Source: Lycium barbarum (taxonomy: Eukaryota; Streptophyta; Magnoliopsida; Solanales; Solanaceae). Taken from it: a DNA stretch of 64,000 nt. The position numbers and the translations under genes are program-made. Where the stretch lies: the NCBI RefSeq assembly GCF_019175385.1, contig NC_083339.1, forward strand, positions 77,520,307-77,584,306. Reading direction: 5' to 3'. The notes under the pieces were generated by a model. The model was not told where the DNA came from. It made no database searches and saw only the letters and a program-made list of their open reading frames with translations. This document shows, piece by piece, positions 5,840 to 51,688 of the stretch. How positions within the stretch are numbered: position 1 is the stretch's first letter; every line of letters starts with the position of its first letter.

Positions 5840-5851
5840 TGGTATCAGAGC
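5840..5851 (+). other. Element A primer-binding site (initiator Met tRNA)
   Basis: TGGTATCAGAGC lies four bases after the LTR. It is the standard PBS complementary to the 3' end of plant initiator methionine tRNA and fixes the element as plus-strand. Confidence 0.95.
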
Positions 5852-7130: not shown

Positions 7131-7473
7131 AGTGAACTGAGAAGTAGGAGATTCTGTTATAGCAAGGCAAGTATATAGAGATTGTTCGGTGATCATATGC
7201 AGTCGTTGCACCAAGGCAGATCTGATAGAGCTAGATATGACTGAATTTGATGTTATTATGGGTATGGATTGGTTAGCTTCTTGTTATAGTAACGTTGATT
7301 GTAGAGGCAAGATAGTCCGATTTTTGTTTCCAAGAGAGCCAATTATAGAGTGGATGAGAAATACAGCATCGCCGAGGGGTAAGTTTATTTCATACCTCAA
7401 GGCAAGGAAGATGGTCAGAGAAGGTTATATTGAGGTATCGACTAAGCTGATAAGCAGGGATAAGTCACGATGA
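7130..7473 (+). pseudogene. Element A protease-region remnant
   Basis: An open frame (7189-7473) reads CTKADLIELDMTEFDVIMGMDWLASC, then the PREPIIEW and [17 protein letters not shown] region, closely matching the protease C-terminus of element I (45180-45400). The protease catalytic DSG/DPG motif upstream is not present, and the match ends before RT begins. It is a deletion remnant and cannot encode an active protease. Confidence 0.88.
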
Positions 7474-10400: not shown

Positions 10401-10645
10401 ATTTCAACAGAAGAGCCCGTAATACAACTGACAACGGACTGCGAAGTAAGCGGAGAGTAAAGGCAATGAGGTGGAATTATCACCTCGGAAAGCAACACAA
10501 GGAGGAGATATTACAGGAATGACTTTGTAGAGATCTGGAATGCGTTATAGTGAATTATAACGAATCGACAAATAGAAGAGGTATGTGATGGGCATACTTA
10601 AATAAGAGAACACTTGAGAAGATACTGGGAGTTCAGGACAAGTTT
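7474..10645 (+). other. Element A interior of unknown origin, purine-rich on the plus strand
   Basis: About 3.2 kb occupy the place of RT, RNase H and INT. The plus strand is conspicuously rich in A and G and poor in C, all three forward frames have frequent stops, and none of the conserved pol motifs seen in I, E or K appears. I do not recognise it. It may be an anciently scrambled pol or an unrelated filler sequence. Confidence 0.55.
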
Positions 10646-10681
10646 AACATTCGAGGACGAATGTTCTAAAGGGGGGAAGGA
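10646..10681 (+). other. Element A PPT with adjacent perfect palindrome
   Basis: AACATTCGAGGACGAATGTT (10646-10665) is followed by the purine tract AAAGGGGGGAAGGA (10668-10681), which abuts the 3' LTR. The palindrome arms are 8 bp around AGGA. Confidence 0.92.
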
Positions 10682-12313
10682 AGTTATACCCCGTACATTT
10701 ATACGTCGAACTATTCGCAAGAAAATCGACTCGAGTTAAAGACGGAATCACTTTCGGACACAAAATAGAAATCTTTAATTTTCAATTATAATTAAAACAT
10801 AAATTGTTTATAAATTTTATTTAGTGTAAAAAAAATATTGGAGATTGGGGATTAATTAATTGTGATTAGATTTTTAAGTGGGAATTAGTTATTAATTAAA
10901 AGTAATTAAGTTAATTAATTATATCATCTAGTGGGCCCCACCCGATTTTTAAATTAAAAAAAAAACAAAAAACAAAACAGCAAATGGTGAGTCACAAGGA
11001 GATGGAAACGTGTCAACTTAAAGGGAACCATATAAATGGTTGATTATTGAATCAACAAAACATTTCATTCTAAGAATAGAAAGTTGAAAAAAAAGAAACA
11101 AAGAATAAAACACCCATGGCTGCTCGGCCAGCCATGGTGATTGAAAAAACAATGTGTGTTTTGTTGCTATTTTGATCACGATTCAAGTAAATTTCAAGTT
11201 CAAGGGGGTGATAGCAACGTTGGATATTGAATCGGGGAAGAAGAAATTGCGAAATTGGAGCAATTAAGGGCAGAAATTCCTCCGAGAAAATTAAGGTAAG
11301 ATTTTCTTGTTTTATGGTGTAATTGTGTTAATAGTATTGTAATGGAATTATTAGAATTGGATTGGACGAAATTGCATGAAATCGATGTTATGCGAAATTG
11401 TGGGTTGAAATGGATTAAGGAAAGTTGTTGGGTTGTTAGAATTGGTATGGGCTGAATTGGGAGAATTATTATATATATTGTTGTTTTTGGTATTTCTATG
11501 TTGACAGGAGGACAATTAGAAATTCGGGTTAGGCGAATATATAGGGGAAATGCTGCCCGATTTTCGTTAAGTCCCTAACTAATGGAAAACCCTAAGCGAG
11601 AATACATAAGCTGAAATATAGGTTCTATAAGAAATGGGTTATATATTTGTAAACTAGAAAATATAGTTACTAACGATAGCGTTACTCTTATATTAAATAG
11701 GCTAAAAGAGCGTCGAGACGAACGGGTTACGAATAGCCGCTAACAGGTATGTAAAGCTGTCCCTTCTTTCTTTTGGCATGTCTTAGACTTAAGTGATGAC
11801 TGATATGAACTTTGGGGTAATTCCATTCATAAGCTTTGAGTGATATTCATTATTCTTATTCACTTCTTGATATAACAATTCCCAAGTGATTGAGCCTCCC
11901 TCTTCAGTTTTCTGTACGTTGGATAATAGTTGATAAATATCCGTTCCTATTCTTAGGAACTCTATGATAACTAGTGACTGGACTTCTATAAGGTGTTTCA
12001 TACTATAGTGACATATGACTATGATCCTTAAGGCTTTGTGATATACTTATGATGACGTTCAAGGGATGTTTGATATGTTTCCGAGTGACATTCAAAAGGT
12101 ATTTGATACGACTATTGTCTTGATTTTCAAATGGTAATTCGTGTTGATTATTATATTGAGTCTTGAAAATGTTTTAAAATTGCATATAGTTTCCCACTAC
12201 TCTGCTCGTGCCTGCCTCAATATGTCTTTCACTGAGTCCCCGGCCAGGACACGTTTTCGTGCACAGTTTCACTGCATTGTTCACCGAGTCCCTCACTAGA
12301 GGGCCGGGACACG

Positions 12314-12368
<55 letters not shown>
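12314..12368 (+). repeat. Expanded TA microsatellite, right LTR of A
   Basis: About 27 TA units, against about ten in the left LTR, followed by GATGATATG units. The expansion took place after insertion. Confidence 0.9.
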
Positions 12369-12372
<4 letters not shown>

Positions 12373-12623
12373 ATGGTGATGTGATGATATGATGATATGA
12401 TGATATGATGATATGTTATGGCGGCCAGGAGGGCATATGATGACTTTATTCACCGAATCCCTCACTAGAGGGCCGGGACACGTTATATATATGATATATG
12501 ATATTGATACGCATGATTTTCATTTCATAAGGCAAGTGTATCGATGTTTTAAAAGTCATACTTGTTTCTGGTAATCTCTATTTCAGTTATGATCCTTTTA
12601 CTGTATTTCATGCTTTACATACT

Positions 12624-12680
12624 CAGTACATATTCCGTACTGACCCCCTTTCTTCGGGGGGCTGCGTTTCATGCCCGCAG
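12624..12680 (+). other. Three-hairpin LTR module, element A right copy
   Basis: Same 57-nt module as at 5249-5305, with the stems CAGTAC/GTACTG, CCCCC/GGGGG and CTGCG/CGCAG. Confidence 0.75.
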
Positions 12681-13215
12681 GTACAGATAGTCGGTTTGGT
12701 GACCCTTCAGCATAGGACTTCTACTCAGCTATTTTGGAGAGCTCCGTTTTTCCGGAGTCTAGACTTTTGGTTCAGATCTTATAATGTATATGTATATGTT
12801 TATCCAGGGGTACGGCCGGGCCCTGTCCCGTCATATTTTGTTATCGATACTCTTAAAGGTCTGTAGACATATGTGTGGGTTGTGTATGGGTTCTGTTCAG
12901 CTGTGTCTATACGATGTGCCGTGGTATGATGTTCGTCTCTAGTAGCAGCCTTGTCGGCTTGCATACGGTATTGATATGTGATGGCAGCCTTGTCGGCTTG
13001 CGTATTATTTCATAATATGATTAGTTGTGCCTCCTCAGGAGACCGTTGATCTGGAAGTATATATATATATATATGACGATGTTACGAACTTGGACTTCCT
13101 TTATAAGTTTTCGTATTGTCGTAGTATCAGTTTAACGTTATATGTAACAGGTTGGTACACGGGTGCCCAGTTCGGGCACCAGTCACGGCCTACGGGGTTG
13201 GGTCGTGACAGTTTC

Positions 13216-24851: not shown

Positions 24852-25312
24852 TGTCACGACCCAACCGGAGGGCTGCGATGGGCACTCGGTGCTAGCCCAC
24901 CCGGGCACCTCTTAACATACATTTGCATTTACATCTAGGTGAGCCATATATTAAATCATACTATTTCCATTCATCAATCATACTAATCCCATTGGACAAC
25001 AATACCTTTATATCAACATTAGCAACTATGCCCATATCAATGTATATAAGCCGACGAGGCTAACAAAATGACATCCAAAATATAGGCCGACAAGGCCAAT
25101 TACATCTAACTATATACACATGTCTACGAGCCTCTAAGGAGAGTATGTCATATCATATATGTGGGACAGGACCCCGCTATGCCCATAAATATGTCCACAA
25201 AAGAATCAATACCAAAAGCTATAGCTCCGAATGAAATGGAGCTCCTCTATGTAGTCCTTGAGGAATATAGCTATGGATCAAGCCTGTCTCCCTGGTCACC
25301 TGCGGGCATGAC
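24852..25312 (-). mobile_element. Element E 3' LTR, left piece
   Basis: Starts TGTCACGACCC and resembles solo LTR C and the K LTR closely (CTAGGTGAGCCATATA, GACAAGGCCAA). It stops at ATGAC, within stem-loop 3 of the conserved hairpin module, where F is inserted. Confidence 0.92.
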
Positions 25313-25564
25313 TGTCACGACCCAACCCTGTAGGCCGTGACTCGTGTCCGAGCAGGACACCTTACGTACCCAATAACCCCAAACCAACATATAAATTAGA
25401 TATGCATATATAAAAGCCAAACGGAGTCGCAAGCTATCGTACATAAGCAGATGTAGCGCAAGAAAGCCGATAAGGCCGTCACAAAATACATATTCTCAGA
25501 ACATAAACACACAACCCACGTATGTGTCTACAGACCTCTACAAACAATACTAACAGAAACATAA

Positions 25565-25583
25565 GACGGGACAGGGCCCCGTC
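25565..25583 (-). other. Fourth conserved LTR hairpin, GACGGG/CCCGTC, element F left copy
   Basis: Perfect six-base stem around ACAGGGC on the plus strand, which is GCCCTGT in element sense. Compensatory difference from C and I. Confidence 0.7.
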
Positions 25584-25714
25584 ATACCCCTGAATAAACA
25601 TATACATATGTGATAGAAAAGTCTATACCAAAATATGGCTCCGGACAAAGGAGCACTCCAAAACAGTAGAGCAGATATCCTAAGCGGGCGGATCTCTGAA
25701 GTGGGTATCTGTAC

Positions 25715-25772
25715 CTGCGCGGCATGAAAACGCAGCCCCCGAAGAAAGGGGGTCAGTACGGAATATGTACTG
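25715..25772 (-). other. Three-hairpin LTR module, element F left copy
   Basis: In element sense: CAGTAC/GTACTG, CCCCC/GGGGG, then CTGCG and CGCAG with one extra GC in the third stem-loop. Confidence 0.72.
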
Positions 25773-28319
25773 AGTATGTAAAGAATGAAGTACAGTAAAC
25801 AAACTCATAACCGGAACAGAAAGTACAGAAAATGAGTGCAAAGTCCAGAATATCAAAATTCATACTTACAAAACATAAATAGTGTATGCAGAAACATATA
25901 TCAAATTTGGCCCCAATACGGGACTCGGTGAACAGAACGTGGCGCCACCCCATCACTGGCGCCACAACACATCATACTTCAGAGTAGGGAATAGCTCTGT
26001 AACATATCATAACATATCAGATGGCCGTATCATATCATATCACCAACATCAGAACATAGATGTACATGGCACATCATACTCCGGACCCATGTACATGTCA
26101 TACCTGCCCCCTCACATCGAGGCACGGCGAACAATGCAGTGGAATACGCTTGATAACAAATCCTGGCCCGGGCTCAGTGAAAGAAGCATTGAGGCATCCA
26201 CGAGCAGAGTAGTGAGAAACCAAATGCAGGGTAAAGTATAAAAACATTTACACAGACTCAATCGAAGAACCCAAACAACAGATCATTAGAAAGACGTCAG
26301 ACGATAATCGTAGTGCATACCTTTCGGATGTCACGGTGGATTATGTCAGAACAGAACTTCCGGATTCGTGGTACATATCAAAACATTTCATAGGACTTAA
26401 TGGAATATTTCAAACAGTTGTCGTTTAGGAATTAGAAGAGCAGCCAAGCGTTTGCTTTAGATATCGTTCGGGAACAATTCAATAGCACAATAGAAGTGGA
26501 TTCGGAAATAGGGGGCCCGCCTCGGGTGAACCGAGGTGGCGGGCACAAATTATGTGTAATAAACTTTATGGAGTCGCTTATGAGGGTTTTAAGGTAATCG
26601 GATTTTATTTACACAAGTTCTAGGTATTTAGACAACTTTTCTAACCATTTGCAACAAAATTAGTTCAATTCCACTGAATGGAACAAGGACAAGTTTAGAC
26701 GCAGGTTCCGAAGAGTAGAGTAGTCCCCGAGGTCCAAATTCAAACCTAATACATCTAGGACATGCCAAGAGAAGGAAAGGTGGAGCTTTACATACCTTTC
26801 TTGCCTTTTACGCTCGCCAAACGTCAAATCCCGTTTCGTCCGAAACCTACAAATGGTCACATCTAGCAAATGTTACTATAAGGCTTTTGGCATCCAATCT
26901 TGAATTAGTACTTGTCTACCGAAATTTCGACAGCACCTCCCCTATAAATACGACACCCCGAGAATTCAACTCGGCCAAAATAATTCAACAACAACCCAAC
27001 AACAACAATCACTACAAATCACAATATGTCACAATTAGACTTCTTTCCAACATAATGCAATAACTTTCATTCCGACTTCGCATTTTCAAATCAATACCAA
27101 CATGCTCATATTCATTACTAATCAAGATCACTACAATATAATTCGGAAACATTTCATATCATTTCTACAATATATTCACAAGATATACAAAATATACAAA
27201 CTTTCCACCAAAACCATAATTCATCCGAAACCTCTAATTTTCGACATAAATATCCATAACACATTTTCATCCTCCAATTTCATTAACAATAATCATAATT
27301 CGTGCCTTAACAATTTCATTTTTCATAATTACATAAATTTACCATAAAATCATAAAACTTCCCATAACAACTTAACAACCAATCTTTCATGCTAATATGG
27401 ACTAGCATCCTTCTAAATTCACCAACCAACATAACAATTCACATATAGCTATTTCATAATTTTTATTTCCGTAATGAAGTCGAAATTAATGCTAACAACA
27501 TCAATAGCAACATCCTCCACATTCTACAAGTTAACTACATCTATTTTCATCCAAAATTCTCTTCAAATCTCATTCCATAATTCACAATACCAACGGACGA
27601 ATTTATATCGCTATTTTTCCCGTTCTAATCCGTTAAAACTTTAAATAATCTTGTTAGCAATGAAAAGGAGCCTTATCCATACCTTAAGAATTCAGCCACC
27701 ACGTTATCACCCTCCTCCTTGGTTGATTTTTACCTCAAATTGAAGACAACGCGACATACAACACTTTTGTCTTCATGGGCTTCGGGATTCGGGGCTCGGA
27801 TTTTGATCAAAATTGATTTTTCTTCTTTCCAATGCTCTTTTCTCTCTCTCTCCAGAACTTTCTGTTCTTCTTTGTATGAATAATGAGGAGAAAGACCTGA
27901 AATTTCATTTAAAAGGGTGTGGGTAATGGGCCTAACCCGGTTGGGCCCGAGTTGGGCCTAGCCCACTGACCTTTCGACCTTAAAACGTCCATATCTCCTT
28001 GTACCGACGTCACCTAGGAACCCAGGACCTATGGTTGGAAAGCTAGTTCAATTATCTACAACTTCCATTTCTTGGTAATTTTCCAAATTCCAAACTTATA
28101 ATACCGTTGTTGCCCCTCAAAGTCAGGTCACCCAAAAACGTTTTCTTAAACATATTCGCTTGGAGGGCTTCCACTTTGATTTGGCCCAAGGGTCCTTCAT
28201 GAGTTGTGTTTAACTTTACATATGTGATTCATATAACTTGTCACATGTTCCAAAAAAATATCGATGTGTAGGCCCCACCCCAGCAAATAATCCGACGTTC
28301 AAAAATACGGGATATAACA

Positions 28320-28355
28320 TCCTCCCCCCCTTTAGAACATTCGTCCTCGAATGTT
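28320..28355 (-). other. Element F PPT with adjacent palindrome
   Basis: On the minus strand the purine tract AAAGGGGGGGAGGA abuts the LTR. The perfect palindrome AACATTCGAGGACGAATGTT (28336-28355) precedes it. Confidence 0.9.
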
Positions 28356-29242
28356 CAACTGGCCTCATGGGGTGTTATAATACTTCGGGACGGTCCCTCA
28401 TATAGTTATACTTCAAGAGGTCTCTTTCTTTCCTTCAAAATTTTTTAAATGTTACAATTGCCATCCCCTTTTTCGTACTCACTTTCTCTCCATTCCCGAA
28501 CATCGTGATACTAGGACTTTCTAGCCTTGACTAGTGGTGGGGCTAGTATCAGTCTACTTTGTAATATTTGTACCATGTCTTTCGCTTTGTTTCTCAAATT
28601 CTGTTCAGTTAATATCTTTCATACCTCGCGACACTGGCTGCTGAGGTCCACCTACCGGTCGGTACAGTCATGAATGGGGTGTCATATGCACATTTATACC
28701 TTTCCTACCATTTCTCTTACAAAACATTTCCCAAACGCTTATTTAAACTTACTCTCATTCCCAAGCTGCATTGCGCTATCTTCTTCCTTACCGGCTTATC
28801 TTGCCTTAATCTACCCGACTTCTCGAGGGTTTCTAATCACTTCACATATTCTAATTTCTTTTAGGTTACCCCAAATTCCCATCTGTCTCTTATACTCACA
28901 CTTATGAAAATTTTAGTATACTTCCCAGGGGTCACCCATCCCAGAATTTCTCTGGCCCTAGCACGCTTAACCTTGAAACTTTAATGCATTTCGGCACGTT
29001 AACATTGACATAATTGCATCGACTTCCCCACACAACTTTTCTCACACAGTCTAGGGCAAGCCGGGGTCTTAACAATTTCCGGATAATTATCGTAGCGGGT
29101 CCCACTCCGCTTTAAAAAGGGTCTTTTATTTCTCTAACTTAAGGAATTACCGAATTAGTCCTTTAAATCCTCAACATTCACCTTTTTATCCATAGAAATA
29201 GTTACCTCTCACGATCCTATTGCTTCGAATCTTATCAAGATT
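28356..29242 (-). other. Element F non-coding interior replacing pol
   Basis: About 890 bp between the PPT and the protease remnant. Apart from the 5S rRNA-like stretch I recognise nothing in it; it is C/T-rich on the plus strand and has no pol motif. Confidence 0.6.
28921..29020 (-). pseudogene. 5S rRNA-like sequence inside element F
   Basis: Read on the minus strand, this begins GATGCAATTATG where plant 5S rRNA has GATGCGATCATA, then 57 bases after that start reaches TTAAGCGTGCTAGGGC, followed by GGGATGGGTGACC and CTGGGAAGT. The spacing matches plant 5S rRNA, recalled from general knowledge, almost base for base, with one deletion in the CTCC before TGGGAAGT. Many differences in the first half are C-T or G-A type. 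The internal-promoter region (A box GTTAAGCGTGC, C box GGATGGGTGACC) is best preserved. The last ~18 bases of 5S are not recognisable, and no T-rich terminator is obvious. It has the same sense as F. It is not expected to make functional rRNA. Confidence 0.82.
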
Positions 29243-30430
29243 CTATAAGTCATTAGGAGGGAAAATATACCACAAAATAGAGCCTAAACCTGTCAATGTA
29301 TATATATTTCGAGAAAAGACCGATAATATACCTGCATTCGCGTCTGGTGGCGCCTCCGGGTCTTGTCGACTAGTCAAGGCAAAGATGCGATGCGAAGGGC
29401 CGCTGGAACTGGGAGCTCCGCCACGGCCTCTACCGCGGCCTGCTAGTGTCGGTGTACCTTGCCCCGTGGGGCGCATAGCCACAGATGAAGATGATGAACC
29501 AACAGCTGACCCCATAGGCTGAGCCATACCACCCGGGCCGCCCCTATACGGACACTCTCTCACAGCGTGGCCTTGACGGCCGCACGCAAAGCAGGCACCT
29601 GTAGCACGATAGCACTCTCCAGGGTGGTGCCTCCCGCAATAAGAACATTGAGGCATAGGTGGCCTCGACTGGCCAGAACCTCTGTCCGTCCGTGAGCCCG
29701 AAATCCTGGAGCTCTGGCCTATCCCTGAATGCCCTAGGCTATCAAACCTCCTGCCTGAAAACTGTAGAGGTGTACTCGGTGCCGACTGGGAAAGATGTCT
29801 GCTGAACTGCTGCTGCTGCTGAGGCTGCATACTCCGAAACTCTCCAGAATACCCAGTCGATCTGGCCCTCTTGGGCCGGCTCTCATCCTGACTCCTATCG
29901 GGCTGACGCCCTTTATGCCGGTCCTCCATGCCCTAGGCGTGCGCCTGTATACGAGCAATATCCATCCCGGACTGAGCGGCCATCACTAAACAACTATCGA
30001 TCAAATAATCATCCAGCCCCATTATATACCGATGCATCCTATCAGTCATAGTAGCTACCACAGCAGGTGCATACCTAGCCAATGAGTCAACCTCCAGGCT
30101 ATACTCCCGGACACTCCTACCATTCTGTCTCAATAGCAAAAATTTGTCGGCCCTAGCCCGCCGTAGCTCCGGAGGCAGAAAATAGCCAAGAAAGGCCTCA
30201 GTAAACTCGTCCCATACTGCTGGAATCTCGGAAGCTGGCGGTGAAGCCGTCCCCCGATCCGCAGCTGCTGCAATCCCCTCTGGGTGTGACGGTGTAGAGG
30301 AGCCCTCTGCCTGGGGCAAAATCTCAGGAATAATATATGCACGGGCCCTGGTAGTCCTCTGGGCCTAGCTAGTCTCCCTCGCTGCCACTGACTTGGCCTT
30401 CTGGGCCGCCGTCGCCTTTTTCGGAGGCAT
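29243..30430 (-). pseudogene. Element F gag with dead protease start
   Basis: Starts MPPKKATAAQKAK (ATG at 30430), as in element I. A TAG is at codon 22 (about 30365) and another stop at about 29930. About 80 or more residues of the gag core, present in I, are missing before AVWDEFTEAFLGYFLPPE. The zinc-binding part keeps CSYCGRRH-like and CFACGRQGHAVREC (CX2CX4HX4C). The protease catalytic motif DPGST of I is replaced by TGLGSI, so the active Asp is gone, and coding ends soon after. At best this is a gag-only remnant. Confidence 0.88.
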
Positions 30431-30619
30431 GACTGCAAATGTAACAATTCGTTAGGGAGGAATCATCCTGATAACACAGCTCTATCGCACGATCTAAGAC
30501 AAGAAAGAAGGGTAACATCCTAAATGCCCTGTAGCCTCCTGTTTATAGGTGTGGTGCACAACACATCGATAAACAAGACTCTACTAGACACGGTCTGTAG
30601 ACATTCCGAGAACCAAACC

Positions 30620-30631
30620 GCTCTGATACCA
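30620..30631 (-). other. Element F primer-binding site (initiator Met tRNA)
   Basis: The reverse complement reads TGGTATCAGAGC, four bases inside the 5' LTR that starts at 30636. Confidence 0.94.
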
Positions 30632-30635
30632 CTTC

Positions 30636-33632
30636 TGTCACGACCCAACCCCGTAGGCCGCGACTCGTGTCCGAGCAGGACACCTTACGTACCCAATAAC
30701 CCCAAACCAACATATAAATTAGATACGCATATATAAAAGCCAAACGGAGTCGCAAGCTATCGTACATAAGCAGATGTAGCGCAAGAAAGCCGATAAGGCC
30801 GTCACAAAATACATATTATCAGAACATATATACACAACCCACGTATGTGTCTACAGACCTCTACAAACAATACTAACAGAAACATAAGACGGGACAGGGC
30901 CCCGTCATACCCCTGAATAAACATATACATATGTGATAGAAAAGTCTATACCAAAATATGGCTCCGGACAAAGGAGCACTCCAAAACAGCAGAGCAGATA
31001 TCCTAAGCGGGCGGATCTCTGAAGTGGGTATCTGTACCTGCGCGGCATGAAAACGCAGCCCCCGAAGAAAGGGGGTCAGTACGGAATATGTACTGAGTAT
31101 GTTAAGCATGAAGTACAGTAACCAAAATCATAACCGGAACAGAAAGTACAGAAAATGAGTGCAAAGTCCAGAATATCAAAATTCATACTTACAAAACACA
31201 AATAGTGTATGCAGAAACATATATCAAATTCGGCCCCAATACGGGACTCGGTGAACAGAACGTGGCGCCACCCCATCACTGGCGCCGCAACACATCATAC
31301 TTCAGAGTAGGGAATAGCTCTGTAACATATCATAACATATCAGATGGCCGTATCATATCATATCACCAACATCAGAACATAGATGTACATGGCACATCAT
31401 ACTCCGGACCCATGTACATGTCATACCTGCCCCCTCACATCGAGGCACGGCGAACAATGCAGTGGAATACGCTTGATAACAAATCCTGGCCCGGGCTCAG
31501 TGAAAGAAGCATTGAGGCATCCACGAGTAGAGTAGTGAGAAACCAAATGCAGGGTAAAGTATAAAAACATTTACACAGACTCAATCGAAGAACCCAAACA
31601 ACAGATCATTAGAAAGACGTCAGACGATAATCGTAGTGCATACCTTTCGGATGTCACGGTGGATTATGTCAGAACAGAACTTCCGGATTCGTGGTACATA
31701 TCAAAACATTTCATAGGACTTAATGGAATATTTCAAACAGTTGTCGTTTAGGAATTAGAAGAGCAGCCAAGCGTTTGCTTTAGATATCGTTCGAAAACAA
31801 TTCAATAGCACAATAGAAGGGGATTCGGAAATAGTGGGCCTGCCTCGGGTCAACCGAGGTGGCGGGCACAAATTATGTGTAATAAACTTTATGGAGTCGC
31901 TTATGAGGGTTTTAAGGTAATCGGATTTTATTTACAAAAGTTCTAGGTATTTAGACAACTTTTCTAACCATTTGCAACAGAATTAGTTCAATTCCACTGA
32001 ATGGAACAAGGACAAGTTTAGACGCAGGTTCCGAAGAGTTGAGTAGTCCCCGAGGTCCAAATTCAAACCTAATACATCTAGGACATGCCAAGAGAAGGAA
32101 AGGTGGAGCTTTACATACCTTTCTTGCCTTTTACGCTCGCCAAACCTCAAATCCCGTTTCGTCCGAAACCTACAAATGGTCACATCTACCAAATGTTACT
32201 ATAAGGCTTTTGGCATCCAATCTTGAATTAGTACTTGTCTACCGAAATTTCGGCAGCACCTCCCCTATAAATACGACACCCCGAGAATTCAACTCGGCCA
32301 AAATAATTCAACAACAACCCAACAACAACACCAACAACAACAACAATCACTACAAATCACAATATGTCACAATTAGACTTCTTTCCAACATAATGCAATA
32401 GCTTTCATTCCGACTTCGCATTTTCAAATCAATACCAACATGCTCATATTCATTACTAATCAAGATCACTACAATATAATTCGGAAACATTTCATATCAT
32501 TTCTACAATATATTCACAAGATATACAAAATATACAAACTTTCCACCAAAACCATAATTCATCCGAAACCTCTAATTTTCGACATAAATATCCATAACAC
32601 ATTTTCATCCTCCAATTTCATTAACAATAATCATAATTCGTGCCTTAACAATTTCATTTTTCATAATTACATAAATTTACCATAAAATCATAAAACTTCC
32701 CATAACAACTTAACAACCAATCTTTCATGCTAATATGGACTAGCAACCTTCTAAATTCACCAACCAACATAACAATTCACATATAGCTATTTCATAATTT
32801 TTATTTCCGTAATGAAGTCGAAATTAATACTAACAACATCAATAGCAACATCCTCCACATTCTACAAGTTAACTACATCTATTTTCATCCAAAATTCTCT
32901 TCAAATCTCATTCCATAATTCACAATACCAACGGACGAATTTATATCACTATTTGTCCCGTTCTAATCCGTTAAAACTTTAAATAATCTTGTTTGCAATG
33001 AAAAGGAGCCTTATCCATACCTTAAGAATTCAGCCACCACGTTATCACCCTCCTCCTTGGTTGATTTTTACCTCAAATTGAAGACAACGCGACATACAAC
33101 ACTTTTGTCTTCATGGGCTTCGGGATTCGGGGCTCGGATTTTGATCAAAATTGATTTTTCTTCTTTCCAATGCTCTTTTCTCTCTCTCTCCAGAACTTTC
33201 TGGTCTTCTTTGTATGAATAATGAGGAGAAAGACCTGAAATTTCATTTAAAAGGGTGTGGGTAATGGGCCTAACCCGGTTGAGCCCGAGTTGGGCCTAGC
33301 CCACTGACCTTTCGACCTTAAAACATCCATATCTCCTTGTACCCACGTCACCTGGGAAGCCACGGCCTATGGTTGGACAGCTAGTTCAATTATCTACAAC
33401 TTCCATTTCTTGGTACTTTTCCAAATTCCAAACTTATAATACCGTTGTTGCCCCTCAAAGTCAGGTCACCCAAAAACGTTTTCTTAAAAATATTCGCTTG
33501 GAGGGCTTCCACTTTGATTTGGCCCAAGGGTCCTTCATGATTCATATAACTTGTCACATGTTCCAAACAAATATCGATGTGTGGGCTCCACCCCAGCAAA
33601 TAATCCGACGTTCAAAAATACGGGATATAACA
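30636..33632 (-). mobile_element. Element F 5' LTR
   Basis: 2997 bp, nearly identical to 25313-28319. Visible differences include an extra ACAACAACACCA-type unit near 32325 and a ~16-bp deletion near 33540. Hairpin module 31038-31095; fourth hairpin 30888-30906. Confidence 0.95.
31038..31095 (-). other. Three-hairpin LTR module, element F right copy
   Basis: Same as 25715-25772. Confidence 0.72.
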
Positions 33633-33637
33633 ATGAC

Positions 33638-39712: not shown

Positions 39713-40135
39713 TCATGACTCCTCATTCTGAGGGAGTGTATCTCTGTAATGCATTAGCATGGGATCTTCGTATTGTCGCTCTTTCGCTTCTACATCTAGC
39801 GACGAGACTGCTGAATTCTTAATTGTAGTTCCCCTGCTACTTGAGTCCACTACTCGAATTCCAAGGCTAGCTAACTGCTGGAGCTCACGAGCCATTTCTC
39901 TCTTCTCTGGTCGTACATCATACAAACTTCCTATGGATCTACGGCTAAGAGCGTCAGCCATAACATTTGCCTTTCCAGGGTGATATAGGATATCAACATC
40001 ATAATCTTTTAGCAATTCCAACCATCGTCGTTGCCGCAAATTCAACTCTTTCTACTTGAAGATATACTGAAGGCTCTTATGATCTGTATAAATATCCATA
40101 TGGACACCATATAAATAATGTCTCCACATCTTTAA
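39713..40135 (-). pseudogene. Element E RNase H C-terminus and INT linker
   Basis: Reads [20 protein letters not shown] and ADALSRRS to the linker. A CAG-to-TAG change lies just before LNLRQRR at about 40055. The RNase H is cut at 40135 by element I; the rest continues at 51694. The duplication TTTAA (40131-40135 and 51689-51693) marks the site. Confidence 0.9.
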
Positions 40136-40545
40136 TGTTATATCCCATATTTTCATACATTGGGACGTTTTAAAATAAACGCGACAAGTTAAAAACAAGA
40201 CTATCTTAAGGTACGAAGTAGAGATTTTAACTTCCGGTTTCGTTTCGAGTCACAATTCACCTACAATTTCGTTGGCATGAAAGTATTAATTGAAAATGGG
40301 GATTAAATTAACCATGGTTAGATTAATAAGTGGGATTGGGAACAAAAAAATCAGCCCATTATTTAAAGCCATGTTTGGCCGTGTAGAATAATGGAGTGGT
40401 CAAAGATTCTTGACCCAAGTTAGTGTAGTACACATGGCCAAAATATGGAGTGAATACATAATGTGAAAAAAATCTGATTCACTCCACATTCCACAACTCA
40501 TTTCAACACTTACAAGTTGAAAATACATAGTGAGAGAAAGAGAAG

Positions 40546-40569
40546 CTCTCGGCTAGAGCTAGCCGAGAG
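40546..40569 (+). other. Leader palindrome in I left LTR
   Basis: CTCTCGGCTA, GAGC, TAGCCGAGAG. A (CCATGGCTG/CAGCCATGG, 3764-3787) and L (ATTCGG/CCGAAT, about 61682-61693) have different hairpins at the equivalent place. Confidence 0.75.
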
Positions 40570-42708
40570 TGGTGAGGTGAGTTCAATCCAAAAGAAAATC
40601 AGCTTTCTTCCTCAAATCAACTCCTCATTTAGTGTACAAGAATATTTAGTAGTTGTTGAAAATAAACAAGGAAGTGTAGCACCTCAATAGAGTTGAAGTT
40701 TCGGCCAAGGTGAAGAACAAGATTGAAAGGTAAGAATGCTTATTGTTCTTGTGTTGTATGATGATTTGAATGTATAGTTCATGCATGTTGTTGTTGGATT
40801 GTTGTTGTAGTTGAAGTAGAGAGTGAGCCGTGAGTGAGGTGAAGTCATGATTGATTTCATTTTGCATGTATTGTTGATGAATTGAATATGTACCAACATA
40901 GGTAAATGAACAAAGATTGTAGAAGTTGGTTGTGATGTTGCATGTTGGATATTGGGCTGTTTTTCTTGAATTGAAAATGAGCCGTGTGTTGAAGGTTCTA
41001 ATGAAGTCATGCTTTATCTTCTTTAACATGTATTGGGAATGGATTGAATGTATTGTAGTTGGATAAACGGATAAAAATCATGAAATCGTGGGAAGGGTGT
41101 TGTAGCCGTGAAAAAGGGACTGTTTTCGGGGAGATTTAGGGACTGTTTTGTGTCACCTTTGGATTGTTGTTGTTATGGACATTATGGTGTATTGTATGCA
41201 TGTTGGATATGTGAATTGAGGTGTTAAAGAAATGAATTATGTTGAAGTGTATAGGCAGTCCAAAACCGTGGACAGTTTTGATGTTAGAAGTGAATTTGTG
41301 TGTGTTGAATGTTGATTCTTGTTGCAAACGTTTAGTGAAAGTAAAGTGCATTGATTCAAGTTGAAACTGAAATGATGGTGGGCTGTTGTAGGAATGAAAA
41401 TGAGGTTAAAACAGTTCCAAGAATCATGAAAGTAATGTCATTAAACGTGTTGTTGTTGTTGCAAGTTAAAACTGGAAAATTGCTAAGTGAGAATGGAAAT
41501 GCTATGTGTGTTGTTTAGCCGTGTGTATGAAACAGTTTTGAATGGTGTAGGGACTGCCCAAGCTCCCTAAGTCATGTTTAAACAAGTCTTGATTAATATA
41601 TGAAAGAACGATTAGCAATGTTAGCTTGTAACGCTTGTTGGTTTGAATGCGAACGAAACGTCGTTTAATTGTTAGAAAGGAATTGTGAGTGTCACAATAC
41701 GTATTGAATGCCCTTGTAGACTAATTGTAGATCTTTATATCTTGATATAGGATAAGTGTTTTTGGGCAGCATGTACAAGTTAGAATACAACTAAACGCTA
41801 AAGGTATGTAAAGCCTATTCCTTCTTTCTTTTGGCATGTCCTAGACGTAAGTATGAAACGATATGAACCTTGGGGTAAATTCTATTCTCTAGTTCCATGC
41901 ATGACTTATGATTCTATATTTCATTAAGGCCATTGTCATGTGCCTACAATATGAGTGACTAATGAATAATGTATGAAGGTTCCTATTCTTAAAGGATTGC
42001 ACAATTAGAGACATACTTGACTTTCAAAAGCTACACCAAATTAAAGTGATATATGTACATGAAATCTGAAACGTTTCTTGTGATAGGTTGTTATGAGACT
42101 TGAAATGAACTGAAAATGAATATCATTTTAACACTTTAGAGCTGGTCAGTTGCTTATCCATTGAGTCTCAAAATATGAATTGCATATATGTGGTTGCTTA
42201 TTATTCTGCTCGTGCTTATCGCTATATCCTTCACTGAGTCCCGGGCCAGGATACGTTTTCGTGCGCATGTTTACTATATTATTACCGAGTCCCTCATTAA
42301 AGGGCCGGGACACGTTATATATATATATATGATGATGATGTGATGATATAATGATATGATGATATGATGATGTGATGATATGATGATATGGAGATGATGG
42401 TGGCCAGGAGGGCATATTCCTTATTACCGAGTCCCTCAGGAAAGGGCCGGGACACGTCTATGTTTATGTTATGATGCTATGATTTTAGATTACCGAGTCC
42501 CTCATTAAAGGGTCGGGACACGTTATATATGTTATATACAGAATGATTATGCAGCTTTGATTACAAAACTCTATAATGATAATGATATGAGAATGATACA
42601 GATGAATTATGCTCATAGGCAAGTTTTAAGAAATTCTGGTTGTTGCTCTGAGTCCTACATACTTTTTCTCCTTATGAGTCTATTACTACATTTCATGCTT
42701 TACATGCT

Positions 42709-42764
42709 CAGTACATATTCCGTACTGACCCCCTTTCTTCGGGGGGCTGCGTTCATGCCCGCAG
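42709..42764 (+). other. Three-hairpin LTR module, element I left copy
   Basis: Stems CAGTAC/GTACTG, CCCCC/GGGGG and CTGCG/CGCAG, ending GCAG|GTACAG. Confidence 0.75.
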
Positions 42765-42896
42765 GTACAGACGCTCGTTTCGAAGATCCGCCAGCTTAGG
42801 ATACCTATTCAGCTATTTTGGACTGCTCCCTTGTTCCGGAGCCTAGCTTGTGGTATAACTCCCTTATGTTGTATTCATATGTGTTTGTTTGGGTAC

Positions 42897-42915
42897 GGCG
42901 GGGCCCTGTCCCGCC
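42897..42915 (+). other. Fourth conserved LTR hairpin, GGCGGG/CCCGCC, element I
   Basis: Perfect six-base stem around GCCCTGT. Confidence 0.7.
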
Positions 42916-43317
42916 ATATGATACGGTCATTACTCTTAGAGGTCTGTGGACATCGGTGTGGGTCTGTTTGTAGTTGTTGATGCGTTTTATGTCTATGGCT
43001 TATGTTTGGGGCGTACCCATTCGTAATGGCAGCCTTGTCGGCTTGCATATATATGTATGTTTGGTATTTTGTATATCGTGGAAGCCTTGTCGGCTTGCGT
43101 AGTAATATATATATCTATGTGGTTATTTAAAAGTGCAACTCCTCAGGAGACAGGTGCCTAAGACACACAAAACTTTGACAGATTTAAAATACTCCCTATC
43201 TTTTTATATACAAATGAGATCATGACATGCTAATTGTAAATGACTATAGTTAACAGAAAATATGAGTGTCCAACTCGGGCACTAGTCACGGCCTACGGGG
43301 TTGGGTCGTGACAAAAG

Positions 43318-43329
43318 TGGTATCAGAGC
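43318..43329 (+). other. Element I primer-binding site (initiator Met tRNA)
   Basis: TGGTATCAGAGC, four bases after the LTR. Confidence 0.95.
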
Positions 43330-43519
43330 GGTTCAATCCTCGGAGCGTCTACAGACCATGTCGAGTAGAGTCTTGTTTATCGATGTGTTGTGGACCACAT
43401 TTATAAACAGGAAGCTACAGGACATTTGGGATGTCATCTTTCCTTCTCATTCTAGATCGTGCGATAGAGTTGTGTTATCAGGATAAATCTTTCCCTAACA
43501 GATTGTTATATTTACAGCG

Positions 43520-45000
43520 ATGCCTCCAAAGAAGGCGACGGCCGCCCAGAAGGGCAAGGCGGTAGTTGGAGAGATCAGTGGGACCCGGAGGGTCACTAGA
43601 GCTTATTCCCAATATGTGCCTGAGATTAGGCTTCAGTCAGCGAGCTCCGCTACACCATCATTATCAGAGGAGCCTAGGGCAGCAGCAGCTGCGGATCAGG
43701 AGACAGAATTACCACCAGCTCCTGAAGCTCCAGCACCTGAGCCTCCAGCCCCCCAGCCAGGGGCGGAAGATAGGGCTATGCGTGACGCAGTACAGTTATT
43801 GACCAGGTTGGTATCGGGACAAGCTCGCAGACGCGGGTTAGAAGGTGGTTATGCGGATAGACACGACAGTTTGAGCGTCCGTGATTTTCTAACTTGTAAA
43901 CCCCCAGAGTTCTATGGGTCAAAGCCCGCAGAGGATCCACAGGAGTTTATTCGATAGATGCTGTGTACGTTGCGGGTGACTAAGGCTTCCGAAACTGAGT
44001 CGGTTGAATTGGCTTCATATCAGTTGCGTGATATAGCAGTAAATTGGTATGAGTCCTGGGAGTTGTCCAGGGGTGAAGATGCTCCACCAGCGGTATGGGA
44101 CGAGTTTGTAGAAGCTTTTCTGGGTCATTTCCTACCTCCAGAGATGAGGCGAGCCAGAGTTGACAGATTTATACACCTGAAGCAGAATGGTAGAAGTGTT
44201 CGAGATTATAGCCTCGAGTTTGATTCACTGGCTAGGTACGCGCCCGCTATGGTAGCTGACATGGCAGATAGGGTACATCGTTAGGTAATGGGGCTGGACA
44301 ATTACTTGATTGATAGTTGTATGGCAATGGCTTCCCAGCCCAGTATAGATATCGCCCGAGTGCAGGCATATGCACAGGGGGTTGAAGATCGACAGAGAGG
44401 GCGCCGATTTGATAGGGAGCAGGAAAGGGGTCAGCATAAGAGGGCTAGATCAGCGGGGTACTCTTCTGGCGACTTTCCGGGCAGGCAGCCCCAACAGCAG
44501 TATAGTAGATATCCTTCCCAGCCGGCACGGAGTGCACCTTCATAATTTACTGGTAGGAGGTTTGATAGCACGGGGTATTCGGGAACCGGTCAAAGCTCCA
44601 TGACTTCAGGGTTCCAGATGCACAGGAATTCAGGCCAGATGAGACCACCTATACCCCCGTGTCCTCGATGTGGCAGACGCCATCCAGGGGAATGCCGTTT
44701 CATGACTGGTGCTTGTTTCACTTGTGGCCGTCAGGGCCATACTATGAGGGAGTGTCGATTTGGAGGTGGTGCAGGTGGCCCAGCTCAGCCTACGGGGTCT
44801 GTCGCGGGTTCTTCTTCTTCTTCAGTTGCTATGCGCCCTATGGGGCAAGGTATTCCGACACCAGCAGGCCGTGGCAGAGGCCGTGGAGGGGCTTCCAGTT
44901 CTGGCGGTCCTTCAAACCGCCTATATGCTTTAGCCAGCAGGCAGGATCAGGAAGCGTCGCCAAATGTGGTCACAGGTATACTATCGATTTTCTCCCGAGA
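43520..45000 (+). pseudogene. Element I gag, broken by stops
   Basis: Starts MPPKKATAAQKGKAV. The Pro/Ala-rich N-terminus is followed by the retrotransposon-gag core (FLTCKPPEFYGSKPAEDPQEF, YQLRDIAVNWYESWE, FVEAFLGHFLPPEMRRAR, YSLEFDSLARYAPAM) and a zinc-binding tail (CPRCGRRHPGEC, then CFTCGRQGHTMREC, a CX2CX4HX4C knuckle). In-frame stops are at 43955 (TAG), 44282 (TAG) and 44543 (TAA); each is explained by a single C-to-T change in a Gln codon. Gag would coat the RNA and form the particle. Confidence 0.92.
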
Positions 45001-45379
45001 CGTTTATGCATTGATAGATCCAGGCTCCACATTATCATATATTTCCCCTTTTGTTGCTAGTAAAATTTGGATAAAATCTGAATCTATAGAACTATTTGAG
45101 GTAGCTACACCAGTAGGGGATTTTGTCTTAGCAGAGCTAGTATATAAAGATTGTTCGGTAGTCATATGTAATCGTTGTACCAAAGCAGATTTGATAGAGT
45201 TAGCCATGACTGAGTTCGATGTTATTATGGGGATGGATTGATTAGCTTCCTGCTATGCTAACGTTGATTGCCGAGGCAAAGTAGTTCGGTTTCAGTTCCC
45301 AGGGGAACCAATTATAGAGTGGAGGGGGAATACAGCATCGCCTAGGGGTAGGTTTATTTCATACCTCAAGGCAAGGAAG
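45001..45379 (+). pseudogene. Element I protease region
   Basis: The retropepsin active site reads ALIDPGSTLSYISPF, with the catalytic Asp present. Downstream, FDVIMGMD is followed by TGA at 45239 where other copies have Trp (MDWLAS). The protease would cut the gag-pol polyprotein. The region continues without a gap into RT. Confidence 0.92.
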
Positions 45380-46680
45380 ATGGTTAGAAAGGGCTACATT
45401 TATCACCTGGTTCGTGTGCATGACTTGAAAGCAGAAACACCGACTCTACAATCTGTCCCGGTGGTTAATGAATTTCCAGGTGTATTCCCAGATGAACTTC
45501 CAGGCCTTCCTCCTGAACGTGAGATAGAGTTCACTATAGATGTATTGCCAGACACTCGGCCTATATCTATTCCTCCTTACAGAATGGCACCTGCAGAACT
45601 GAAAGAATTGAAGGAGCAACTGAGAGATTTGCTGGAAAAGGGTTTTATTAGGCCCAGTACATCACCTTGGGGAGCACCAGTGTTATTTGTACGAAAGAAG
45701 GATGGGTCGCTGCGAATGTGCATTGATTATAGGCAGCTGAACAAAGTCACCATAAAGAACAGATATCCCCTCCCCAGGATTGATGATTTATTTGACCAGT
45801 TGCAGGGTGCTAAATGTTTTTCAAAGATAGACTTGCGGTCAGGTTATCACCAGGTGCGGGTAAGGGAAGCAGATATTCCGAAGACTGCATTCAGGACCCG
45901 ATACGGGCATTACTAGTTTAAAGTGATGTCCTTTGGGTTGACCAATGCTCCAGCAGTATTTATGGACTTGATGAACAGGGTGTTTAAGCCATTCCTTGAC
46001 TTGTTTGTGATTGTATTCATTGATGATATTCTGGTCTATTCACGATCGGAGGAAGAGCATGCAGATCACTTGAGGACGGTACTCAGGATACTCCAGCACC
46101 AGAAATTATATGCTAAGTTTTCTAAATGTGAATTCTGGTTGACTTTAGTAGCATTTCTGGGGCATATTGTTGGAGTAGATAGTATTCGGGTAGACTCGCA
46201 GAAAATTGAGGCCGTCAAAACCTGGCCTAGACCGACGACGCCTACTGAGGTACGTAGCTTTCTGGGGCTGGCAGGGTATTACAGGAGATTTGTAGAAAAG
46301 TTTGCTTCTATTTCAGCGCCTTTAACAAGGCTAACACAGAAAGCAGCTAAATTCCAGTGGACCGATGCTTGTGAACGGAGTTTCCAAGTATTGAAAGATA
46401 AGTTGACTACAGCTCCAGTCCTAACTCTTCCTGAAGGGCCAAATGGCTATGTTGTTTATTGTGATGCTTCCGGTGTTGGGTTGGGTTGCGTGTTGATGTA
46501 GCACGGCAGAGTTATAGCCTATGCCTCCCGACAACTCAGGAAACATGAAAGAAATTATCCTACACATGACCTGGAGTTGGCAGCAGTGATACATGCCTTG
46601 AAGATATGGAGACATTACCTATATGGCGTGCATGTTGATATTTATACAGATCATAAAAGTCTCCAGTATATCTTTAAGCA
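45380..46680 (+). pseudogene. Element I reverse transcriptase and RNase H
   Basis: The RT fingers and palm are readable ([80 protein letters not shown] with the catalytic Asp pair). The thumb and RNase H follow ([39 protein letters not shown]), with the catalytic acids kept. Stops are at 45914 (TAG in place of a Glu codon) and 46499 (TAG in place of Gln). Copies element RNA into cDNA in the family. Confidence 0.94.
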
Positions 46681-48390
46681 GAAGGAGCTGAATTTGCGGC
46701 AAAGGAGATGGCTGGAGTTGCTGAAAGATTATGATGTCGATATTCTATATCACCCAGGGAAGGATAATGTTGTAGCAGATGCACTCAGCTGTAAATCTAT
46801 GGCTAGTTTAGCAAGCGTACATCCAGGAAAGAAAGGGGTAGTCCGTGAGATTCATCAGCTAGCTAGTCTTGGAGTTCGGTTGGCTGATTCTGATAATGGT
46901 AGCGTTTTGGTGCGAGGTGTTGCTGAGCCCTCTATTGTAGAAGAGGTAAAGAAGCGTCAATATGAGGACCCTGTTCTGGTACATTATAGAGATACAGCAC
47001 TTCAGAAGGAGGAGACCCCATTTAAGATGTCAGCCGATGGAGTACTACGATACAGAGACAGATTATGTGTACCTGAGGTTGCAGGGTTACGGCAGCAGGT
47101 AATGAGGGAAGCACACTGTGCTCGTTATTCTATTCACCCGGGATCGACAAAAATGTATCATGATCTTAGGTATTTGTACTGGTGGGATGGTATGAAAAAG
47201 GACATAGCAGAATTCGTGGCTCAGTGTCCGAATTGCCAACAGGTCAAGATAGAGCACCAGAAAACTGGAGGGCTATTGCAGGAGATGGAAATTCCAACCT
47301 AGAAATGGGAGGTAATTAATATGGATTTCGTCACAGGTTTCCCTCGCACCCCGCGGAAGTATGACTCTATCTGGGTTATTGTTGATAGATTGACAAAATC
47401 AGCCCACTTTCTTCCAGTCAGGACTACGTACTCAGCTGAGGATTATGCCCGATTGTATCTTAAGGTGATAGTGAGACTTCATGGAGTTCCCACAGCGATT
47501 ATCTCGGATAGAGGGGCCCAGTTTACAGCTAACTTCTGGAGATCCTTCCAGGAGGGATTGAGGACGCAGGTGAGTCTCAGCACCGCATTTCATCCTCGGA
47601 CTGACGGGCAGGCCGAGCGTACCATCCAGACGCTACAGGATATGTTACGGGCCTGTGTCATTGATTTTAGGGGAAGCTGGATGATCACTTGCCACTTATC
47701 GAGTTTTCTTATAATAACAGTTACCACTCTAGCATTCAGATGGCACCGTACGAAGCCTTGTATGGCAGGAAATGCAGATCCCCTGTAGGCTGGTTTGATG
47801 TTGGCGAGACTAAGCTGATAGGACCAGATATGGTTCAGCAGGCTGTTGATAAGGTGAAACTTATTCAGGAAAGATTACTGACAGCTCAGAGTCGGCAGAA
47901 GGCATATGCAGATAATCGACGTCGACACTTGGAATTTCAGGTTGGCGATTGGGTGTTCTTGAAAGTGTCACCCATGAAGGGTGTTATGAGATTCGGCAAG
48001 AAAGGGAAGTTGAGCCCGAGATACATTGGACCTTACCAGATTATCCGTAAGGTAGGCCAAGTTGCCTACGAGTTAGATCTACCAGCAGATTTAGAAGCAG
48101 TACATCCGGTCTTCCATGTGTCAATGCTTCGGAAGTATATAGGCGATCCTTCCAGGGTGTTCCCTACAGATGATATTCAGGTAACTGAGGAGCTATCATA
48201 CGAAGAACAACCTATTGCCATACTTGATCGACAAATCAGGAGGTTACGAACAAAAGATATGGCGTCGGTTAAAGTGTTGTGGCAGAACAATAATAGGGAG
48301 GAGATGACTTGGGAGGCTGAAGAGGAGATGAAAAAGAAATATCCTCACTTGTTTTCCACATCTACAGGTAATTTAAACTCCCTTGCTTGA
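46681..48390 (+). pseudogene. Element I integrase with chromodomain-like C-terminus
   Basis: The zinc domain [17 protein letters not shown] with [10 protein letters not shown] is complete. Catalytic motifs are MDFVTGFP, ISDRGAQF and DGQAERT (DDE intact). A TAG at 47300 replaces a Trp, and loss of one G near 47681 shifts the frame; the rest reads from 47689. The C-terminus holds SPRYIGPYQIIRKVGQVAYE and a chromodomain-like tail (IAILDRQIRRLRTKDMASVK, TWEAEEEMKKKYPHLF). Such tails bind methylated histone H3 in studied chromoviruses, which would favour insertion in heterochromatin. Confidence 0.93.
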
Positions 48391-48475
48391 TTGTGTTAAT
48401 TGTCTGCTCAATTTATATGTTAGCAATAAGGAAAACCCTCCCCAAAACTCTTATAGAATCCAACGGGATAAAATC

Positions 48476-48511
48476 AACATTCGAGGATGAATGTTCTAAA
48501 GGGGGGGAGGA
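48476..48511 (+). other. Element I PPT with adjacent palindrome
   Basis: AACATTCGAGGATGAATGTT (48476-48495), with one mismatch in the palindrome, then AAAGGGGGGGAGGA (48498-48511) next to the LTR. The palindrome lies about 90 bases after the pol stop. Confidence 0.92.
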
Positions 48512-51500: not shown

Positions 51501-51688
51501 TTTAAAAGTGCAACTCCTCAGGAGACAGGTGCCTAAGACACACAAAACTTTAACAGATTTAAAATACTCCCTATCTTTTTATATACAAATGAGATCATGA
51601 CATGCTAATTGTAAATGACTATAGTTAACAGACAATATGAGTGTCCAACTCGGGCACTAGTCACGGCCTACGGGGTTGGGTCGTGACA
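48512..51688 (+). mobile_element. Element I 3' LTR
   Basis: Nearly identical to 40136-43313, with the same leader palindrome (48921-48944), donor-like GT at 49105 and 50179, and the hairpin module at 51084-51139. Confidence 0.96.
51084..51139 (+). other. Three-hairpin LTR module, element I right copy
   Basis: Same as 42709-42764. Confidence 0.75.

What the first reader, a model, noticed from the sequence alone, without database searches (positions are those of the whole stretch)
28921..29020. A 5S rRNA gene copy carried inside a Ty3/gypsy element
Seen: the minus strand of F's interior aligns with plant 5S rRNA over about 100 bases with nearly unchanged spacing (57 bases from GATGC to TTAAGCG, as in 5S, then one single-base deletion). 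The A-box GTTAAGCGTGC and C-box GGATGGGTGACC are the best-preserved parts, and many other differences are C-T or G-A type. It has the same sense as the element and lies where pol should be. Known: Cassandra-type TRIM elements carry 5S sequences in their LTRs. Here it is in the interior of a Tekay-type element, which I do not know as a described case. Inference: captured 5S RNA, with the RNA polymerase III promoter possibly retained, may have given this deletion derivative an extra promoter, or it is a chance template-switch product.
Basis: partly seen in the sequence, partly recalled or inferred. Interest (0 to 1): 0.88.

Follow-up and report, generated by a model that had tools for sequence, protein, structure and literature searches.

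The report
5S promoter inside gag-only Ty3 elements
A family of goji-berry jumping genes that lost their enzyme genes carries a piece of the ribosomal 5S RNA gene inside them, and the part of it that works as a gene switch has been kept almost unchanged while the surrounding sequence decayed.

Summary
Confirmed and extended. Window 28920-29020 (minus strand) is homologous to positions 2-103 of the host's own 5S rRNA gene (nhmmer E=3.1e-13, only hit in the window). Rfam RF00001 does not detect it, probably because the RNA fold is lost. It lies inside element F, a Ty3/gypsy element (25313-33632, duplicated target ATGAC) that keeps gag but has an 838-bp block with the 5S where pol should be. It is not a one-off: 20 of 20 fetched copies found by 5S similarity have it downstream of gag in the same sense, and so do 15 of 26 examined copies found by gag alone; 7 of those 26 carry pol there and no 5S. 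An exact 35-base core pattern occurs 364 times in the genome (control 0). Between subfamilies the internal control region (5S 48-103) differs at 1 of 56 columns, against 11 of 47 in the first half of the 5S and 72 of 258 in the flanks (p=3e-6). Best reading: a nonautonomous lineage captured 5S rRNA sequence and selection kept its Pol III promoter. Pol III activity is untested. It resembles Cassandra, but the 5S is in the interior of a long gag-bearing element, not in a TRIM's LTR.

The parts
25308..25312 (.). target-site duplication ATGAC, left copy
   Evidence: direct reading; the homologous unoccupied site near 54706 has one ATGAC
33633..33637 (.). target-site duplication ATGAC, right copy
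30636..33632 (-). 5' LTR of element F (TG...CA)
   Evidence: 97.1% identical to the 3' LTR over 3023 aligned columns; termini read
30620..30631 (-). primer binding site TGGTATCAGAGC (tRNA-Met type; assignment recalled)
   Evidence: direct reading
29199..30634 (-). gag and start of protease, homologous to the pol-bearing relative at 40135-51688
   Evidence: blastn to 43315-43735 and 44087-45107; Retrotrans_gag PF03732 E=9.1e-12 in the open stretch 29933-30364; broken by stops in this copy
28361..29198 (-). 838-bp block that takes the place of pol; no other significant match in the window
28920..29020 (-). 5S rRNA-derived segment, 5S positions 2-103
28961..28971 (-). A box GTTAAGCGTGC, identical to host 5S (5S 50-60; box borders recalled)
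28950..28955 (-). intermediate element position (5S 67-72; borders recalled), one difference from host, shared by the four groups compared
28930..28941 (-). C box GGATGGGTGACC, identical to host 5S; F-type copies lack one C of the C-run that follows
28907..28910 (-). TTTT 111 bases from 29020, possible weak Pol III stop; not kept in all copies
28320..28333 (-). polypurine tract AAAGGGGGGGAGGA
   Evidence: direct reading; adjoining 28320-28360 matches the same place in other elements of the window
25313..28319 (-). 3' LTR of element F

Best explanation
Element F belongs to a nonautonomous lineage of Ty3/gypsy elements whose nearest pol-bearing relative in the window has a chromodomain-like integrase end. 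Most of pol was lost, gag was kept, and a sense copy of 5S rRNA sequence (5S +1 to about 103) was taken up between gag and the polypurine tract. Shown: anatomy, homology to the host 5S gene, the same position in several subfamilies, absence from the pol-bearing relatives examined, and preservation of the internal control region (A box, intermediate element, C box) against decay of the first half of the 5S, of the flanks and of the RNA fold. Inferred: the module is kept because the DNA binds TFIIIA and, through TFIIIC and TFIIIB, recruits RNA polymerase III inside the element. That would give a short sense RNA (about 110-115 nt to the first TTTT in F, or up to the T-run in the 3' LTR) and/or an open, Pol III-occupied stretch that helps the element escape silencing. 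Which benefit applies is open. Also inferred: capture went through RNA, because homology starts at the transcript's first base and no 5S spacer is seen on either side.
For: Host 5S profile E=3.1e-13. 20 of 20 copies fetched (of 40 scored 5S hits) have it downstream of gag/protease sequence in element sense; LTR pairs flank it in 17 of these 20. In a set picked by gag only (40 scored, 26 examined), 15 of 26 carry it and 7 of 26 have protease into RT-frame sequence there instead. 364 exact matches to a 35-base core pattern, control 0; 171 matches to a second pattern, control 0; the two of these read, L073 and L076, have the same flanks. Columns where subfamily majorities differ: 1 of 56 in 5S 48-103, 11 of 47 in 5S 1-47, 38 of 131 upstream, 34 of 127 downstream, Fisher p=3.3e-6; divergence-to-polymorphism contrast p=0.005 against the rest, p=0.008 against 5S 1-47; columns variable within groups 18 of 56 in the core and 16 of 47 in 5S 1-47, so the core does not mutate less than the first half. 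Pairwise, gag-found copies against F: 5S 48-103 6.4%, 5S 1-47 19.9%, A box 0.6%, C box 1.2%, flanks 13-26%. L072 and L073 match the host at 35 and 34 of 47 and 48 and 50 of 55: along the series the first half decays while the promoter half stays.
Against: No transcription or binding data. Upstream motifs of plant 5S genes (TATA-like near -28, C at -1; recalled) are not seen; the base before +1 is T. The TTTT stop is not kept in several copies, e.g. L022-L024, L050. All 11 F-type copies compared lack one C just after the C-box core, and L072 and L073 also lack one base there. Within groups the flanks vary more (59 of 131 and 75 of 127 columns) than the core (18 of 56), so part of the contrast with the flanks may be mutational. 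With only two groups (gag-found against F-type) the column contrast stays (p=0.004; against 5S 1-47 p=0.022) but divergence-to-polymorphism is not significant (p=0.13). F-type copies and subfamilies B and E were found by 5S similarity, which favours conserved 5S. L072 alone shows no significant difference between the halves (p=0.13); L072-L075 were picked by an exact core pattern and say nothing about core conservation.
Confidence: 0.6

Rival explanations
1. Passenger: a neutral template-switch product carried along by a successful nonautonomous lineage, with no function.
For: LTR elements pick up host RNA now and then (general knowledge); first half, fold and terminator have decayed; after insertion, core and first half vary alike among copies (18 of 56 and 16 of 47 columns); the two-group divergence-to-polymorphism test is not significant.
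Against: 1 of 56 against 83 of 305 columns differ between subfamilies; the conserved stretch coincides with the internal control region; the module persists although the rest of the 3' interior shrank differently in the subfamilies compared.
Confidence: 0.18
2. The 5S module came from a Cassandra TRIM (its LTR or RNA), not directly from 5S rRNA or rDNA.
For: Same promoter core; Cassandra also varies mainly between the boxes (PMC10853983, section 11), where this module differs from the host (5S 63, 68, 73, 75, 77, 80).
Against: Homology reaches 5S +1, with 35 of 47 matches in the first half in L072, beyond the ~70-bp core common to all Cassandras. A pattern meant to catch Cassandra-type cores gave 171 hits; the two read carry this same module, the others were not read. 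No Cassandra sequence was compared. Some Cassandras have more than 100 nt of similarity (PMC10853983), so this is not excluded.
Confidence: 0.1
3. The segment acts as RNA: a 5S-like fold in the genomic RNA that binds ribosomal protein L5 or TFIIIA and aids nuclear export or packaging.
For: 5S RNA is bound and exported by these proteins (recalled); the segment is in sense orientation inside the element.
Against: Fold no better than shuffles in three copies (z +0.99, -0.65, +1.55) while the host 5S is at -1.66; RF00001 finds nothing; the 3' arm of helix I is missing since homology stops at 103.
Confidence: 0.07
4. Apparent conservation is produced by sampling or alignment.
For: Part of the copies was found by 5S similarity; groups B and E have 2 and 1 copies.
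Against: The gag-picked set shows the same contrast against F, and within-group variability in the core equals that of 5S 1-47.
Confidence: 0.05

Closest known systems
Cassandra TRIM retrotransposons (PMC10853983: outline and sections 3, 11 and 21 read; PMC7215508: passages seen)
   Same: Nonautonomous plant LTR retrotransposons carrying the 5S internal control region; boxes kept, spacers between boxes vary; methionine-type PBS; some copies form LTR-interior tandem arrays
   Different: Cassandra: 563-968 bp, no coding remains, 5S in the middle of the LTRs. Here: F is 8.3 kb with 3-kb LTRs without 5S, gag remains, one 5S in the interior
Tekay/Del-type chromoviruses of Solanaceae (lineage label partly recalled; PMC7076952 passages seen)
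   Same: gag, PBS and PPT layout and long LTRs; the relative E has SH3_Tf2-1 and a chromodomain-like tail, of which L021-type copies keep a remnant
   Different: pol is missing or reduced to a remnant; a 5S-bearing block stands there
Gag-only nonautonomous LTR elements (TR-GAG; definition recalled, term seen only in a search listing)
   Same: gag kept, pol lost
   Different: much longer than the TR-GAG size I recall (<4 kb); no 5S promoter is part of that class as I recall it
5S-derived SINEs (SINE3) of animals (recalled)
   Same: 5S-derived internal Pol III promoter in a mobile element
   Different: LTR element with TSD, PBS, PPT and gag; 5S not at the 5' end

Membership tests
Cassandra TRIM | 5S-derived region inside the LTR | tested here: not met
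   single segment at 28920-29020 in the interior; no other 5S match in the window, LTRs included
Cassandra TRIM | short element without coding remains | tested here: not met
   F spans 25313-33632 and keeps a gag domain
Cassandra TRIM | A box, intermediate element and C box present in a core of about 70 bp | tested here: met
   one IE position differs from the host
Cassandra TRIM | methionine-type PBS and PPT | tested here: met
   TGGTATCAGAGC at 30620-30631 and purine tract 28320-28333; tRNA assignment recalled
Cassandra TRIM | Pol III transcription from the 5S promoter | not testable with these tools
   no RNA data held
LTR retrotransposon | paired LTRs, PBS, PPT, target-site duplication | tested here: met
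Tekay/chromovirus lineage | chromodomain at the integrase C-terminus | tested here: inconclusive
   absent from F; its 5S-less relative E has Chromo at 24.2 bits, just under the 25.1 cutoff, and SH3_Tf2-1; L021 keeps a remnant homologous to that end
Tekay/chromovirus lineage | reverse-transcriptase phylogeny | not tested
   F has no RT; no tree against named lineages was built
5S rRNA gene (RF00001) | 5S secondary structure | tested here: not met
   no RF00001 match to E=10 over 26000-32000; fold not better than shuffles
5S rDNA repeat unit | 5S spacer around the gene | tested here: not met
   flanks do not resemble the host 5S spacer in the alignment; homology spans 1-103 only
Gag-only nonautonomous element | gag without pol | tested here: met
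   between subfamilies gag differs most at third codon positions in 5 of 6 comparisons (F against C 0.235, against 0.187 and 0.148 at first and second), not in C against L027; not within groups

The most novel reading that the evidence does not exclude
A second, independent taking-over of the 5S Pol III promoter by LTR retrotransposons: a nonautonomous, gag-bearing Ty3 lineage of chromodomain type captured 5S rRNA into its interior and has kept a working internal Pol III promoter by selection through several subfamilies, so that the element has Pol II LTR promoters and an internal Pol III promoter at once.
Probability: 0.5. Interest if true: 0.82.

Novelty: new variant of a known kind. Interest (0 to 1): 0.7.

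Why it matters
Whether LTR retrotransposons took up the 5S promoter once or several times is discussed as open in the Cassandra literature, whose authors favour a single origin (PMC10853983, section 21). A family with its 5S in the interior, reaching to 5S +1, and sitting in a different type of element would be evidence for another origin. It is also a natural test of what a Pol III promoter does for an LTR element when it cannot start the full genomic RNA. Close pol-bearing relatives without 5S live in the same genome as a built-in comparison. Hundreds of 5S-like copies also matter for annotation and for probes meant to count 5S rDNA.

Tried and rejected
Rfam on the window: no 5S; kept as a result against RNA function. 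Viral contig scans with 5S or module patterns: 0 matches. The idea that the 838-bp block is an LTR of another element: apart from the module itself only short matches in the window and the 20 loci; its origin stays open. Single or multiple capture from a gag tree of 26 rows: pol-bearing relatives L069-L071 nest among the 5S-bearing subfamilies but the forks are open, so not decided. Cassandra as source: see rivals. Literature: nine searches listed, by title and abstract start, no 5S in the interior of a Ty3 element; only open-licence papers are held, two papers asked for by DOI (recalled as the original Cassandra paper and the TR-GAG paper) are not held, and searches were malformed.

Full report
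Observation. The minus strand of 28920-29020 is a degenerate but unmistakable copy of 5S rRNA positions 2-103. Local alignment scores 85 against a maximum of 30 in 1000 shuffles over the same stretch and 39 in 40 shuffles over the whole window. A profile from the host's own 5S genes gives this single hit in the window, E=3.1e-13. The second half, which holds the internal control region, matches the host at 47 of 55 positions, the first half at 27 of 46. Rfam RF00001 does not see it, even at E=10 over 26000-32000, and the RNA does not fold better than shuffles. So this is a 5S-derived DNA sequence, not a 5S RNA gene.

Element. It lies in element F: LTRs 30636-33632 and 25313-28319, 97.1% identical, ATGAC duplicated on both sides and the unoccupied site preserved in a related copy near 54706. 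A recent insertion: about 1-2 million years with recalled rates. gag and the start of protease are homologous to the pol-bearing element at 40135-51688; the next 838 bp (29198-28361) are not, and only the last bases before the LTR match again. The 5S lies in this block, in element sense.

Host. The genome held for the window has 1.67 Gb. Its contig C5 has exactly the length (143,530,904) of a contig from which a source lists a Lycium barbarum protein (P0069), so the host is taken to be Lycium barbarum, goji (Solanaceae). Another Lycium barbarum contig listed there (171,835,435; P0065) is close to but not equal to C1 (171,831,605). True 5S genes of the host were read from loci on C6 and C11.

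Family. A search with the 141-bp segment scored 40 of 3402 candidates, 87-100% identical. I fetched 20 of the 40 with about 10 kb each. In 20 of 20 the 5S lies in element sense, downstream of gag/protease sequence and of the same upstream flank (only 227 bp of gag/protease in L025). LTR pairs flank it in 17 of 20 (not found so in L010, L025, L026). L021 keeps a degenerate integrase end homologous to E 47760-48510 further downstream; L027 keeps less, F only 76 bp. So the 3' interior shrank to different degrees around a retained 5S module.

Sampling without the 5S. To remove the bias of finding copies by their 5S, I searched with a piece of gag from L021 (40 scored of 5045 candidates). Of these 40, 26 were examined at the expected place: 20 new 401-base pieces and 6 loci already held. 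15 of 26 carry the 5S. 7 of 26 (L059-L064, L066) carry protease into RT-frame sequence there and no 5S. 4 of 26 have other sequence there (L049, L051; L054 and L065 after the start of the module). The pol-bearing ones are 86-89% identical to the query in gag; they are the obvious candidates for autonomous partners (inference).

Selection. Between subfamilies the internal control region is kept: group majorities differ at 1 of 56 columns, against 11 of 47 in 5S 1-47, 38 of 131 upstream and 34 of 127 downstream (Fisher p=3.3e-6 against all the rest, p=0.001 against 5S 1-47). Columns variable within groups are 18 of 56 in the core and 16 of 47 in 5S 1-47, but 59 of 131 and 75 of 127 in the flanks; so the core does not mutate less than the first half of the 5S, though less than the flanks. 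The divergence-to-polymorphism contrast, which allows for this, gives p=0.005 against the rest and p=0.008 against 5S 1-47. Restricted to two groups the column contrast holds (p=0.004; p=0.022 against 5S 1-47) but the divergence-to-polymorphism test does not (p=0.13). Four groups were compared (15 gag-found, 11 F-type, 2 and 1 copies); L025 and the 11 gag-found loci without 5S were left out. In gag-found copies against F, A box and C box differ by 0.6% and 1.2%, the spacer 73-79 by 21%. An earlier profile on 5S-found copies gave 2.5% between subfamilies in the core against 14% in 5S 1-47 and 12-29% around, but that set is biased. Published Cassandras likewise vary between the boxes (PMC10853983, section 11). 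The conserved block is the promoter, not the RNA.

History. L072 and L073 are intermediates: same flanking module, 35 and 34 of 47 and 48 and 50 of 55 matches to the host 5S, starting at 5S +1. L076 is a further lineage with the same module. So the first half of the 5S decays along the series. The start at +1, the end near 103 and the absence of 5S spacer suggest capture of 5S RNA by template switching (inference). Exact core patterns occur 364 and 171 times, controls 0 and 0; the two sets overlap slightly (L073 is in both).

Mechanism. Most likely the segment is kept as a TFIIIA-dependent Pol III promoter. In F a transcript from 29020 would meet TTTT after 111 bases and TTTTT after 716, in the 3' LTR. 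It cannot be the genomic RNA, so the benefit must be indirect: a short sense RNA, or Pol III factors keeping the element accessible. Against: upstream 5S gene motifs (recalled) are missing, the stop is not conserved, and F-type copies lost one C behind the C-box core. None of this has been measured.

Known or new. Cassandra is the known precedent for 5S promoters in LTR elements; F fails its defining features of LTR location and TRIM size, and meets the promoter core. Nine literature searches listed no case like this one; the library is incomplete. I read the outline and sections 3, 11 and 21 of PMC10853983 and saw passages of PMC7215508 and PMC7076952; the other papers only as listings.

Noticed in passing
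G000:C2:46036069-46058131; C4:77521154-77532669; L015 and L016: Copies with the 5S core stand in regular series (six at about 4.4 kb, three at about 5.7 kb), in L015 and L016 as LTR-interior-LTR-interior runs, like the tandem arrays reported for Cassandra.
   Followed up: partly
window 40135-51688: A pol-bearing Ty3 element with 3.2-kb LTRs 99.2% identical, so a very recent insertion, with split frames; the flanks match across the site to another element of the window.
   Followed up: partly
window 3321-13210: Another LTR pair (3321-5835 and 10683-13210, 95.9% identical); stretches of these LTRs match F's LTRs at 79-86%.
   Followed up: no
L029 (G000:C11 near 94.07 Mb): A second 5S rDNA locus with variant genes and truncated 3' pieces of 5S between full-length copies.
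   Followed up: no
L009-L028, gag region: Some 5S-bearing copies keep long open gag stretches (up to 517 codons), and gag differs most at third codon positions in 5 of 6 subfamily comparisons, so these elements may make Gag.
   Followed up: partly
window, gag of F (about 30220): F lacks about 354 bp inside gag that 9 of the 10 other F-type loci have (L013 lacks the region).
   Followed up: no
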